Shown here: piece after piece, positions 5,503-8,399 of the stretch | How positions within the stretch are numbered: position 1 is the stretch's first letter | Layout of the letters: each line of letters opens with the position of its first letter | NCBI GenBank assembly: GCA_002863155.1 | Contig: PKED01000028.1 | Span: 1 to 43,090 of the forward strand | Length of the DNA: 43,090 nucleotides | Reading direction: 5' to 3' | Source of the DNA: Sphingomonadaceae bacterium | Lineage (GTDB): Bacteria; Pseudomonadota; Alphaproteobacteria; Sphingomonadales; Sphingomonadaceae | The notes under the pieces: model-generated | Seen by the model: the letters and a program-made list of their open reading frames with translations, nothing else | What the model was told of the DNA's origin: nothing | Database searches by the model: none | Program-made: the position numbers and the translations under genes

Positions 5503-5982
5503 ATGCGCGCAACAGCCCCCGTCACGCTTGCCGTCATCATCGGCGCGCACGGTGTGACGGGGGAAGTGCGCCTGAAGCTCTTCACCGACGACCTGAAACG
5601 CTACAAGCGTTTCAACGACGGCGCCCTGACGCTCACATCGCTGCGCGACGGCAGCAACGGCGCGATCGCGCGTTTCGCGGAAGTGACCGATCGCAACCGG
5701 GCGGAGGCGATGCGCGGCACCGAAATCACGGTACCGCGCGCCGATCTGCCGCCGCTGGGTGAGGGCGAATACTACCATGCCGATCTGCTTGGGCTGGCGG
5801 TCATCTCCACCGACGGCGCGGCGATCGGCACGGTCGCTACGATCGACAATTTCGGCGCGGGCGACGTGATCGAGATCGAACGCGCCGACGGCACCCGCTT
5901 CATGGTGCCGATGCGTGCCGAGGCCGTGCCCGAGTGGGACGACACCCGGCTGGTGGTCGCCGCAGCCTTCGCTAGCGCCTGA
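5503..5982 (+). CDS. rimM: Ribosome maturation factor RimM
   Basis: Assembly factor for the 30S head domain that binds S19. The 159-residue protein has the N-terminal beta-barrel start [19 protein letters not shown], the [10 protein letters not shown] linker, and a PRC-barrel-like C-terminal half beginning [13 protein letters not shown] and ending [15 protein letters not shown]. The ATG directly abuts the rpsP stop with no gap. The 3' end overlaps the convergent flavoprotein gene by 11 bp. trmD, which commonly follows rimM, is displaced 2.4 kb downstream here. Confidence 0.96.
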
Positions 5983-6874
5983 TCGGCCGGCGCGCGTCGA
6001 GCAAGTTCCGGATCGCCGTTGCAGCGACGCCCGCCTGGCCCATCGCATGGCTGATCTGGTCGAGCCCCTTCACGACGTCTCCGGCGGCGAAAAGGCCCGG
6101 CACGCTCGTTTGCTGGTGGTCGTCCACCTCGAGACAGCCGTCCTCGCTTGCCCGTGCCCCGGCCTCCACGGCCAGTTCCGACCGGATCGTCGAACCGAGC
6201 GCGGGGTAGATGCTGTCAAAAGCCATGCGTCCGTCCGCGGTATCGAGCGCGAGCCGGTTGCCCTCGATCGCGTAGCCACCACAAGGCCCGTCGACCCGGG
6301 CGATGCCGGCATCGTCAAGCGCCGCGACGCACGCTTCGTCGAGCGCGTAGCCGGCAGGGGCGATCAGGGTCACGTCGCGCGTGAAGCCGCGCACGAACAA
6401 CGCCTCGCGCATGCCGTGGTCGCCGGTGCCGATCACGCCGACCCGGCGATCGGTCACTTCATAACCGTCACAGACCGGGCAATAGCGGAGCAGGCCCGCT
6501 TGGAGCGCAGCGTCGTGCAGCGCGTCCGCCATGTCGGGCCGGTGATTGACGACGCCCGTCGCCAGCAGCACCGATCGCGCCGCGAACGCGCGACCACCGG
6601 CAAGCACCCGGAACTCCTGACCGGCGCGTTCGATCGCGCTTACCGCGACCGCTTCGCGCATGGCGCCATACTCAGCCGCCTGTCGCTGCATCCGCGCAAG
6701 CAGATCGACACCCGATATGCCGCCCGGAAAGCCGGCGTGATTGTGGGTGCGCGGGATCAGCGCGGCCCGGCTCGATCCACAATCGAACAGCCGGATGCTT
6801 AGCCGGAACCGCGCGAGATAGATTGCGGCGGTCAACCCCGCCGGCCCGGCGCCGATGATGATGCAATCGTCCAT
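5972..6874 (-). CDS. Thioredoxin-reductase-like NAD(P)/FAD oxidoreductase
   Basis: Class II pyridine-nucleotide disulfide oxidoreductase fold, 300 residues from ATG 6874 (a GTG 21 bases upstream is possible). It shows the N-terminal FAD motif GAGPAG (8-13), a redox-type CPVC (132-135) in [10 protein letters not shown], the NADPH motif GTGDHG (149-154) and the C-terminal FAD contact GLFAAGDVV. The CxxC makes a disulfide reductase likely, although the usual thioredoxin reductase sequence is CATC, so the partner may not be thioredoxin. It runs opposite to the ribosomal genes on either side and diverges from the WHLH/TIGR04222 pair, which has a cysteine-rich partner. A functional link is only inferred. 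Confidence 0.88.
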
Positions 6875-6957
6875 GCGCGCATCAAGCCCCGGCACCGGAA
6901 CTCGTTCCGGCGGCGAGCGATCGGATCGGCAGCCGCTGGGCCGAATTCGCTTGCAAT

Positions 6958-6963
6958 TATACT
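6958..6963 (+). promoter_or_regulatory. Possible -10 element for the WHLH/TIGR04222 pair
   Basis: TATACT lies in an AT-rich patch 25 bases before ATG 6988, in the divergent gap behind the minus-strand flavoprotein gene. No convincing -35 element is seen 17 bp upstream. Confidence 0.35.
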
Positions 6964-6987
6964 CCTACCGTGATAGTGGGAATTCAG

Positions 6988-7560
6988 ATGAGCGCTTCGG
7001 CAGCTTCACCTCTGATCCCCGACCACCCGGTGTGGCACCGGCTTTCGCATTATATCATCGGTCCCGAAGACGCCGCCCTGAGCTTTGCGGCTCGACTAGC
7101 GCGCGAGAATGGCTGGAGCGAGGCGCATGCCCTGCGCATCATCGACGAATACCGCAAATTCGCTTTCCTCGCCGTCACGGGCGACACGCAGGTGACGCCG
7201 TCCGACGCGGTCGATCAGGCTTGGCACCTGCACCTGACCTATACCCGGGACTATTGGGATAGGTTTTGTCCTGAAATCCTCGGAAAGGCGCTTCACCACG
7301 GTCCGACCGCGGGCGGCGAGGCCGAGCGGGGACGCTTCTTCCGGCAATATGCCGATACGCTGAAACGCTATGAGGCCGTGTTCGGACCAGCCCCGGCCGA
7401 TCTGTGGCCGAGCGCGCAACAGCGGCTGATCGAGGATCCGCGCGCGCGCCGGGTGCATCCGCGCGACGGGATCGTGATTTCCAGAAAGGCTCTGCGGCGG
7501 GCGATGGTCGCCTTGTTGATGGTTGCCGCGATTGCCCTTCTGCTTTGGTGGAGGACGTGA
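6988..7560 (+). CDS. Tail-anchored WHxH protein (glycine-rich-domain-protein-like, function unknown)
   Basis: A 190-residue protein that resembles the bacterial proteins annotated as glycine-rich domain-containing by the signature D-x-x-WHLH-x3-TRDYW (residues 76-90). H80, H82, C94 and the HH pair at 103-104 could bind a metal; that is inference. A helical N-terminal half (about 26-62) precedes the motif. A single hydrophobic helix at 172-188 followed by a charged WWRT end makes it tail-anchored, with most of the protein in the cytoplasm. ATG 6988 is chosen because GTGGGA precedes it by six bases; GTG codons at 6970 and 6976 are alternatives. Its TGA overlaps the ATG of the next gene by one base, so the pair is translationally coupled. 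The biochemical role is not known. Confidence 0.7.
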   Translation: MSASAASPLIPDHPVWHRLSHYIIGPEDAALSFAARLARENGWSEAHALRIIDEYRKFAFLAVTGDTQVTPSDAVDQAWHLHLTYTRDYWDRFCPEILGKALHHGPTAGGEAERGRFFRQYADTLKRYEAVFGPAPADLWPSAQQRLIEDPRARRVHPRDGIVISRKALRRAMVALLMVAAIALLLWWRT

Positions 7561-8399
7561 TGGGACTGGGTGTTTTCGACCTGACCGGCGGCCCGTTTCT
7601 GGCGCTGTACGGCGCCCTGTTGGTCGCGGCGATCGTGGCGGGCTTCGCGATCCCGCGCTGGCTGAGACCGGAGGGACGCCGCGCGCCGCTGAACGATCCT
7701 GACCAGATCGCCTATCTCGCCGGTGGGCCACTGCGCTATGTCGATGCCGTGATCGCGCGGCTTCTCGCTGCCGGCAAGATCGCGGTCGAGGGGCAAAGCG
7801 CCGCGCGCATCGTTGCCCCGCCGACCCTGGCTGCGGGCGCCGAGCGATCGGTGCTCGCGCTGCCGACGCCGTCGCCCTGGAGCCGGATCGTGCGGGTCGT
7901 GACGCCGCACGCCAGGGCGGTCGAGCAGCAGCTGGTCCGCGCCGAGTTGCTCATCGATCGCGGCACCGCGCTTCAGCTCCGCTTCTGGTCGATATCACCC
8001 TATCTGCTGCTGATCGCCTTTGGCCTGATCAAGTGGGAGATCGGTATGGGCCGCGGACGGCCGGTGGGTTTCCTGACCGTGCTGCTCGCAGTGACCATCG
8101 GGCTGGCGGTGATCCGCTTCTTCAGCATCGATCGGCGCACACGCGGTGCCATCGACACGCTTGCCGATACAAGATCGACAGCCGACCGGCTGCGGCGCGC
8201 GCCGACCCACGACGAAATACCGCTTGCGGTCGCGCTGTTCGGCACCGTCGCGCTCGCCGGATCGGAATGGAGCAACTACCACGCGATGCGCATGGCGAGC
8301 AGTTCGGGCGGGGTCAGCAGCGACGGCGGCAGCAGCAGCAGCTCTGACGGTGGTGGTAGCGGCTGCGGCGGCGGCGGTTGCGGCGGCTGCGGCAGCTGA
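7560..8399 (+). CDS. TIGR04222-type membrane protein with Gly/Ser/Cys-rich tail
   Basis: A 279-residue membrane protein whose N-terminus ([16 protein letters not shown]) and overall plan fit the uncharacterised TIGR04222 membrane family. One helix lies at about 12-32. A soluble segment of about 45-140 contains [29 protein letters not shown], which looks like a small winged-helix-like unit. Two further helices lie at about 143-160 and 168-188, then a short hydrophobic stretch at about 222-235. The last 30 or so residues are almost only Gly and Ser with the protein's only three cysteines (C269, C274, C277). GGAGGA precedes the ATG. Family assignment rests on pattern recognition; the function is unknown. 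Confidence 0.75.

What the first reader, a model, noticed from the sequence alone, without database searches (positions are those of the whole stretch)
6988..8399. Candidate undescribed module: WHLH tail-anchored protein plus TIGR04222 membrane protein with Cys tail
Two coupled genes (TGATG overlap) encode a cytoplasmic tail-anchored protein with a possible His/Cys metal site (WHLH, C94, HH) and a membrane protein whose only cysteines lie in a Gly/Ser tail. Gly-rich tails with regularly placed cysteines are seen in metal-binding or processed peptides. A CxxC flavoprotein is divergently encoded next door. Together they could form a membrane-bound metal, redox or peptide-modification system. Families are known by name only, so the function is open.
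Basis: inference. Interest (0 to 1): 0.55.

Follow-up and report, generated by a model that had tools for sequence, protein, structure and literature searches.

The report
New partner for cysteine-tailed membrane protein
Two linked bacterial genes make a membrane protein with a glycine-cysteine tail and a helper domain that seems to stand where known tail-modifying enzymes stand in other microbes, and a similar helper-plus-tail pairing is reported in plants, so it may be an unrecognised way of maturing protein tails or loading them with metal.

Summary
Gene 1 (6988-7560) is a tail-anchored all-helical protein. Gene 2 (7560-8399) is a TIGR04222 membrane protein whose only cysteines (C269, C274, C277) lie in a Gly/Ser tail. 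The pair is conserved: 61 of the 80 closest loci from a genome scan carry it in the same order, in Sphingomonadales mostly between rimM and trmD. In other phyla the two are fused, or the WHxH domain carries its own Gly-Cys tail; four archaeal loci have a TPM-type neighbour, with a Cys tail in the three read. The divergent flavoprotein is not a fixed part.

Of 43 TIGR04222 loci from samples of four phyla, 19 have WHxH, 10 an MNIO enzyme, 3 a radical-SAM enzyme, 11 none found; none was found with two. All 32 with a partner have the Cys tail; 4 of 11 without do. W79, Y89, C94 and H104 never vary in 143 aligned WHxH domains.

Best reading: WHxH is an alternative maturation (modifying or metal-loading) partner for Gly-Cys tails. 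Functional coupling is well supported; enzymatic chemistry is inference (about 0.42). MNIO-TIGR04222 systems and plant GRDPs are published; my searches found no report linking WHxH and TIGR04222.

The parts
6988..7560 (+). gene 1: WHxH-domain (GRDP-like superfamily) tail-anchored protein, 190 aa
   Evidence: open frame; directly before gene 2 in 61 of 80 loci; AlphaFold2 mean pLDDT 93.2, all helical
7213..7299 (+). WHxH site of gene 1: D76, W79-H80-L81-H82, Y89, C94, H103-H104
   Evidence: W79, Y89, C94, H104 in 143 of 143 rows; D76 142 and H80 139 of 143; H103 139 of 142 (144 rows, 141 distinct sequences)
7483..7554 (+). C-terminal transmembrane helix of gene 1 (residues 166-189)
   Evidence: helix H166-189; hydropathy 2.17 at 168-186, K+R 5 before and 1 after
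7560..8399 (+). gene 2: TIGR04222 membrane protein with Cys tail, 279 aa
   Evidence: TIGR04222, 134.8 bits, cut-off 43; AlphaFold2 mean pLDDT 89.6 with a low-confidence tail
8310..8396 (+). Gly/Ser/Cys tail of gene 2 (residues 251-279), Cys codons at 8364-8366, 8379-8381, 8388-8390
   Evidence: C269 35/43, C274 40/43, C277 39/43; low pLDDT in this region
5972..6895 (-). divergent FAD/NAD(P) oxidoreductase (thioredoxin-reductase-like); neighbour, judged not part of the module
   Evidence: Pyr_redox_2 106.7 bits; TIGR01292 160 bits, below its cut-off of 343; >50% identity in 10 of 54 slot loci

Best explanation
The two genes are one functional unit in which the WHxH protein matures the Gly-Cys tail of the TIGR04222 membrane protein. 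Shown by sequence: tight linkage or fusion, a nearly invariant Asp/His/Cys/His set, a conserved Cys tail, and WHxH standing where other TIGR04222 loci carry an MNIO or a radical-SAM enzyme. Inferred: the WHxH domain, held on the cytoplasmic face by its tail anchor, acts on the tail cysteines, as a small (probably metal-dependent) modifying enzyme or as a factor that loads metal onto them. The finished tail is then a membrane-bound thiolate or modified-thiolate site, plausibly for copper or zinc handling by analogy with MNIO-made bufferins. My estimates: functional coupling of WHxH and tail about 0.9; the tail is the target of WHxH about 0.7; covalent or catalytic maturation, the statement scored here, 0.42.
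For: (1) 61 of 80 scan loci have gene 1 directly before gene 2; 7 more are WHxH-TIGR04222 fusions by my profile. Five other fusions (L045-L047, L079, L080) all pass the TIGR04222 cut-off. (2) Exclusivity: 43 TIGR04222 loci over the cut-off from samples of four phyla: WHxH 19, MNIO 10, radical SAM 3, none found 11, two at once 0; MNIO confirmed by Pfam in all 10. Chance of no overlap between WHxH and the 13 enzyme loci is 7e-5, or 3e-4 without the four centre genomes. In the 11 cyanobacterial genomes with any hit, 6 have WHxH and no MNIO match, 4 have MNIO beside TIGR04222 and no WHxH match to A4, 1 has neither. (3) Cys tail (2 or more Cys in the last 60 aa) in 32 of 32 loci with a partner and 4 of 11 without; Fisher 1e-5 (from the table with L256 moved to radical SAM). 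(4) MNIO profile: 0 of 127 WHxH loci, window included; rSAM profile: 0 hits in the same loci. (5) Partner switching on the TIGR04222 tree: MNIO-linked L261 sits with WHxH-linked L251 and L257 (97/84). L195, a second copy in a WHxH genome, pairs with the WHxH copy L177 (99/68) and lacks both the WHxH domain and the tail. (6) Site and tail vary together: the four rows without H80 have fewer than 2 tail Cys. (7) The best-scoring NCBIfam models for the radical-SAM proteins of L272 and L273 are SbtM and the ACGX system, maturases of Cys peptides, all below cut-off.
Against: No fold match or catalytic precedent found for the WHxH domain. The 19 WHxH loci are mostly one clade (3 label changes; 2 when only WHxH versus enzyme is counted), so the exclusivity counts are not independent. 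Partners were sought only within the fetched stretches (3.6-15 kb); outside the cyanobacteria, absence from the whole genome was not tested for these loci. 11 of 46 WHxH frames in the Pseudomonadota sample have neither 2 tail Cys nor a TIGR04222 neighbour; one is a fragment of a broken gene and four have exactly 1 Cys. 4 of 11 TIGR04222 loci without a found partner have a Cys tail (two on short contigs). MNIO genes occur somewhere in 22 of 50 WHxH genomes tested, so a remote enzyme cannot be excluded there, though the window's own genome has no match. For the radical-SAM protein of L256, heme-biosynthesis models (NirJ, AhbD) score slightly above ACGX and SbtM. The side of the membrane of the tail is uncertain.
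Confidence: 0.42

Rival explanations
1. WHxH and tail form a two-part metal-binding device without covalent chemistry: the WHxH site (H80, C94, H104) and the tail thiolates share or pass a soft metal such as Cu or Zn, as a membrane-bound buffer or chaperone.
For: Invariant His/Cys residues in WHxH; conserved tail thiols; in cis pairing in members without a predicted membrane helix, L070 and L073; bufferins made by MNIO are copper chelators (PMC12452194 abstract).
Against: The slot is otherwise filled by enzymes, MNIO or radical SAM, which points to chemistry. Linkage to metal-resistance genes was not searched for.
Confidence: 0.3
2. WHxH is a recognition, leader or scaffold domain of the precursor; an unlinked enzyme modifies the tail, or the tail is unmodified.
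For: Many WHxH proteins outside TIGR04222 loci carry the tail in the same chain (27 of 46 frames), as precursors with large leader domains do (recalled: nitrile-hydratase-like leader peptides); MNIO is present somewhere in 22 of 50 genomes.
Against: In the window the domain is on a separate tail-less protein; the own genome has no MNIO match; 0 of 127 WHxH loci have MNIO and none a hit to the rSAM profile; polar residues that look like an active site are invariant.
Confidence: 0.15
3. WHxH is a processing or sorting factor (for example a Cys/His/Asp hydrolase) that cuts or anchors the Gly-Cys tail.
For: An Asp/His/Cys/His set is compatible with a Cys hydrolase (inference from residues); many tails end close to the C-terminus in a CGGCGG-like pattern.
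Against: The tail Cys are kept up to the last residues, which a removed tail would not need (inference); MNIO and radical-SAM enzymes are not known to me as sorting enzymes (recalled).
Confidence: 0.08
4. Hitchhiking: two unrelated genes kept together only because they sit inside the rimM-trmD operon slot.
For: 48 of 48 loci with both flanking genes have gene 1 between rimM and trmD.
Against: Fusions and pairs in other phyla and other genomic contexts.
Confidence: 0.02

Closest known systems
MNIO (PF05114, MbnB/TglH/ChrH)-linked TIGR04222 proteins, PMC12452194 (Antoine et al. 2025)
   Same: Same TIGR04222 membrane domain and C-terminal Ser/Gly region with Cys; similar CGGCGG-like ending in WHxH- and MNIO-linked members.
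   Different: No MNIO match in the window's genome; the slot is filled by WHxH. The paper predicts a periplasmic tail, I favour a cytoplasmic one; its main text has no word beginning with WHLH or GRDP.
GRDP-like proteins (PF07173/DUF1399), plant GRDP1 and GRDP2
   Same: Domain of the same superfamily plus a C-terminal Gly-Cys region, consensus [CG]GGGCGG[GC] (PMC4299439 passages; PMC8585784 passages).
   Different: Gene 1 does not reach PF07173 itself; the tail is on a second protein; plant proteins also have an RNP-like motif.
Radical SAM/SPASM maturases of Cys peptides (TIGR04082 SbtM, TIGR04340 ACGX)
   Same: Radical-SAM proteins that match these models sit beside TIGR04222 in L272 and L273 and one gene away in L256; SPASM passes Pfam's cut-off in L273 and L256.
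   Different: All three score below the curated NCBIfam cut-offs, and L256 scores as high with heme-biosynthesis models; no hit to the rSAM profile in the window.
TPM-domain membrane proteins (PF04536)
   Same: In archaeal L150, L156 and L158 a TPM-type protein (Pfam tested in L156 and L158) with a Gly-Cys tail directly precedes the WHxH gene; L157 has a relative in the same cluster, tail not read.
   Different: Another membrane domain carries the tail in place of TIGR04222.

Membership tests
TIGR04222 domain-containing membrane protein | score above the NCBIfam cut-off of 43 bits | tested here: met
   134.8 bits over 1-229/229
TIGR04222 domain-containing membrane protein | C-terminal Gly/Ser region with Cys (feature of a subset, PMC12452194) | tested here: met
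   C269, C274, C277; conserved in relatives
MNIO-modified RiPP system | MNIO gene (PF05114) in the cluster or genome | tested here: not met
   0 matches in the genome, 99.94% complete, 228 contigs; 0 of 127 WHxH loci by my profile
MNIO-modified RiPP system | modified Cys in the product | not testable with these tools
   needs mass spectrometry
GRDP-like (PF07173) | score above the Pfam cut-off of 22.7 bits | tested here: not met
   gene 1 has no PF07173 hit at E up to 10; 8 of 57 rows of A4 match at E up to 1, best 0.0014; distant members L071 (33.1 bits) and L073 (28.0) pass, L072 (21.1) just fails
GRDP-like (PF07173) | superfamily relation through a profile chain | tested here: met
   profile A1 finds L071 (E 1.3e-12) and L073 (2.8e-11) over the same motif, and both pass PF07173
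GRDP-like (PF07173) | Gly-Cys region in the same chain (plant GRDP1/2) | tested here: not met
   gene 1 ends in a transmembrane helix; the tail is on gene 2
Radical SAM/SPASM Cys-peptide system | SPASM-type radical SAM gene beside the precursor | tested here: not met
   rSAM profile (two seeds): no hit in the window or in the other WHxH loci

The most novel reading that the evidence does not exclude
[quoted passage not shown] It acts on Gly-Cys tails in trans or in cis, does in TIGR04222 systems what MNIO and radical-SAM enzymes do elsewhere, and would extend RiPP-like tail maturation to archaea and to plant GRDP proteins, whose stress and auxin phenotypes would then rest on a modified or metal-loaded Gly-Cys tail.
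Probability: 0.33. Interest if true: 0.92.

Novelty: new variant of a known kind. Interest (0 to 1): 0.72.

Why it matters
PMC12452194 reports that about a third of the fully assembled genomes with TIGR04222 genes lack MNIO (490 of 1372; passage), leaving the fate of their tails open. Here two further partner types are found; in 43 sampled loci WHxH, MNIO and radical SAM were never seen together. This makes a direct prediction for a domain of unknown function that is shared with plants: it should change, or load metal onto, a Gly-Cys tail. The test is small: two genes and one mass spectrum.

Tried and rejected
Flavoprotein as third component: rejected. MNIO elsewhere in the own genome: no match. 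Known fold for gene 1: no Foldseek match with E up to 0.001; best VIA Z 2.9 (71 residues, rmsd 3.1), transcription-factor helices of the TFIIB type. Gene 2: no Foldseek match with E up to 0.001; best VIA Z 8.6 (82 residues, rmsd 2.2) to a designed protein, read as a common helical arrangement. PDB relatives of the WHxH profile by sequence: none. Plasmid relatives of gene 2 by tblastn: none, though the same collection holds a WHxH-TIGR04222 fusion found with gene 1, so that search was not sensitive. Bacteroidota gave a single TIGR04222 hit over the cut-off, the centre genome itself, so that phylum adds no test. Actinomycetota, where most TIGR04222 proteins are found (PMC12452194), could not be sampled; three small WHxH proteins from there have no TIGR04222, MNIO or rSAM profile hit within about 4 kb.

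Topology: I first took the parity of membrane helices as proof that the tail is cytoplasmic. It holds where no helix (L043, L054, L055, L058, L061, L070, L073) or two helices (L044, L048, L049, L051, L052, L143, L153) separate WHxH from tail. In gene 2 a borderline hydrophobic helix (residues 218-234, mean hydropathy 1.28) before the tail leaves it open, so I keep it as an inference. The background for tail Cys (199 of 1185 frames with 2 or more Cys in the last 40; 58 also with 8 or more Gly) comes from naive frame calls and is only a rough yardstick. The first MNIO profile used longest frames; it was rebuilt from exact coordinates and rerun, and all planctomycete MNIO genes were then checked with Pfam. 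The tree still carries L256 as 'none'; its radical-SAM gene was found later. It leaves out 2 of the 43 loci, L263 (split frame) and L265 (fragment). The 46 frames come from 39 of the 40 genomes: G052 and second matches in G292 and G569 were not fetched. In L263 the tail was counted although a TGA lies between it and the WHxH part.

Full report
What is there. Gene 1 (6988-7560, 190 aa) and gene 2 (7560-8399, 279 aa) share one base at TGATG. They lie between rimM and trmD of the ffh-rpsP-rimM-trmD-rplS group (gene names by reading, not tested with models). Gene 2 passes TIGR04222 (134.8 bits, cut-off 43). Its three Cys are in the last 11 residues. Gene 1 has no Pfam or NCBIfam family over its cut-off.

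Anatomy. AlphaFold2 gives gene 1 a mean pLDDT of 93.2, eight helices, the last (166-189) hydrophobic with basic residues before it; this fits a cytoplasmic domain with a C-terminal anchor. Gene 2 (pLDDT 89.6) has an N-terminal membrane helix, a soluble part, two further membrane helices, a borderline hydrophobic helix and a low-confidence tail. In the fusions the WHxH domain, one membrane helix and the TIGR04222 part follow in the same order, so the window's pair looks like the fused protein split in the short loop after the gene 1 helix (inference).

How widely it is kept. Of these 80: 61 have gene 1 directly followed by gene 2 (nearest start at -20 to +24), 7 are fusions by my profile, 7 carry their own Cys tail (two imperfect: L155 ends with the contig, L143 runs on past the tail), 4 are archaeal with a TPM-type neighbour (tail read in three), 1 is a truncated gene without gene 2. 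Where both rimM and trmD are in the locus, gene 1 lies between them in 48 of 48. The 80 are the closest relatives by design. Two of them repeat loci fetched earlier (L116 = L039, L120 = L042).

The wider family. A three-row profile found relatives in 40 of 397 Pseudomonadota genomes. Of 46 WHxH frames in the stretches taken from 39 of these genomes (window included), 27 have 2 or more Cys in their own tail, 5 have TIGR04222 next door, 3 are fused to it, 11 have neither. The 27 and the 11 each include one fragment of a single broken gene (L053); the 11 also include four frames with a single Cys in the last 40 residues, and degenerate paralogues. Across 144 aligned rows (141 distinct; 143 filled at these columns) W79, Y89, C94 and H104 never vary; D76 varies once and H80 four times. 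Rows were found with profiles of the same motif, which favours its conservation. The four without H80 (in L052, L053, L060, L069) are all among the 11; hypergeometric 0.002, but three of them look like orthologues, so this is about two events. The link to GRDP-like PF07173 runs through distant members L071 and L073, which pass that model and are found by the WHxH profile; gene 1 itself does not reach it. In plants the PF07173/DUF1399 domain is joined to a C-terminal Gly region with interspersed Cys (PMC4299439 and PMC8585784, passages read). I had no plant sequence to align.

The slot argument. I searched TIGR04222 without regard to WHxH: 194 cyanobacterial, 343 planctomycete, 398 Pseudomonadota and 335 Bacteroidota genomes. 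This gave 43 gene loci over the cut-off (one gene split over two contigs counted once, by its match coordinates). Partners found in the fetched stretches (3.6-15 kb): WHxH 19, MNIO 10, radical SAM 3, none 11; no locus was found with two. All ten MNIO genes pass the Pfam model PF05114 (four cyanobacterial; six planctomycete, 207-291 bits). The three radical-SAM proteins pass PF04055, and SPASM passes in L273 and L256. Those of L272 and L273 abut the TIGR04222 gene; in L256 a nucleotidyltransferase-like gene (by reading) lies between. Their best NCBIfam matches are SbtM and ACGX for L272 and L273 and NirJ, AhbD, ACGX and SbtM, nearly tied, for L256; all are below cut-off. Chance of no overlap between WHxH and the enzymes is 7e-5 for 43 loci and 3e-4 for the 37 left when the centre genomes are dropped. 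These figures assume independent loci, which they are not. On the tree of 41 TIGR04222 domains the WHxH loci are mostly one cross-phylum group (21 rows with 18 WHxH, support 83/81) needing 3 changes; WHxH against enzyme needs 2. The exceptions are the telling part: L261, with MNIO, is sister to WHxH-linked L251 and L257 (97/84); L256, now known to have a radical-SAM gene, sits with MNIO-linked L258 (93/66, weaker); and L195, a second copy in a WHxH cyanobacterium, pairs with the WHxH copy L177 (99/68) and has neither the domain nor the tail.

Tail and partner go together. All 32 loci with a partner have 2 or more Cys in the last 60 residues, against 4 of 11 without (Fisher 1e-5). Of those four, L255 and L278 are on short contigs; L193 and L276 remain unexplained. 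L274, counted as tail-less, is cut at the contig end inside its Gly region; its near relative L273 has the radical-SAM gene.

Mechanism. WHxH occupies the place of two unrelated enzyme classes with members that modify Cys-containing peptides. The simplest reading is that it does the same work, on the same kind of tail, in trans (window), by fusion, or in cis. The D76, H80, C94, H104 set fits a metal or catalytic site. What the product does is open; copper buffering is a guess from bufferins (PMC12452194 abstract). Against an enzyme: no fold or catalytic precedent found, and a plain metal-binding pair would show much of the same conservation. I put covalent or catalytic maturation at 0.42, metal sharing at 0.30 and a leader or scaffold role at 0.15.

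Where the tail lies. With WHxH taken as cytoplasmic, members with zero or two helices between domain and tail place the tail in the cytoplasm too. For gene 2 the count is 1+3 helices, even, if residues 218-234 do not cross, and odd if they do. PMC12452194 places TIGR04222 tails in the periplasm (passages). A cytoplasmic tail would be simpler for a cytosolic enzyme. Its example ADB18956 of 516 residues is close to my planctomycete fusions (497-505 aa) and may contain a WHxH domain; I did not have its sequence.

Literature. Searches for TIGR04222, DUF692/MNIO, GRDP/DUF1399, PF07173, IPR009836 and PTHR34365, and the family names gave no paper that links the WHxH or GRDP-like domain with TIGR04222, judged from the listings and the passages read. 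Only open-licence PMC texts are held; [quoted passage not shown] PMC5183585 (one passage) mentions a TIGR04222 peptide beside a sulfur transferase in Pseudonocardia. All other listed papers were seen as listings only.

Noticed in passing
L072:4872-5978 and 6420-7238: Two neighbouring WHxH genes whose C-termini are repeats of a Cys-Ala-Gly-Pro-His unit, like a multi-copy precursor.
   Followed up: partly
L070:5023-5517 and L071:4985-5476: Small WHxH (L071: PF07173) proteins ending in a Cys/His-rich tail; L071's tail weakly resembles a FibroRumin radical-SAM RiPP (E 0.005, below cut-off).
   Followed up: partly
L052:4411-4998, L053:5782-6369, L060:4958-5632: WHxH paralogues with H80 replaced by R or K and no Cys tail, beside an intact tailed copy (L052), beside one broken by a stop (L053), or alone in the fetched stretch (L060).
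   Followed up: partly
L150, L156, L157, L158: Archaeal contigs with a TPM-type membrane protein before the WHxH gene; Gly-Cys tail read in three; also a MoxR-like ATPase by reading in L156.
   Followed up: partly
L256:6318-9269 and L265:5570-6762: Planctomycete loci with a nucleotidyltransferase-like gene (by reading) overlapping the TIGR04222 gene; L256 also has a radical-SAM gene.
   Followed up: no
L275:2944-7229: PqqC-like and PqqD/E-like genes (by reading) on the other strand from a TIGR04222 gene that lacks the Cys tail.
   Followed up: no
window 5972-6895 (minus): Thioredoxin-reductase-like flavoprotein, upstream or downstream of the pair in different Sphingomonadales loci: a passenger of the slot rather than a fixed part.
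   Followed up: yes
L144:7851-8303: Sphingomonas oleivorans holds a truncated gene 1 and no gene 2 in the fetched stretch, as if the pair decays together.
   Followed up: partly
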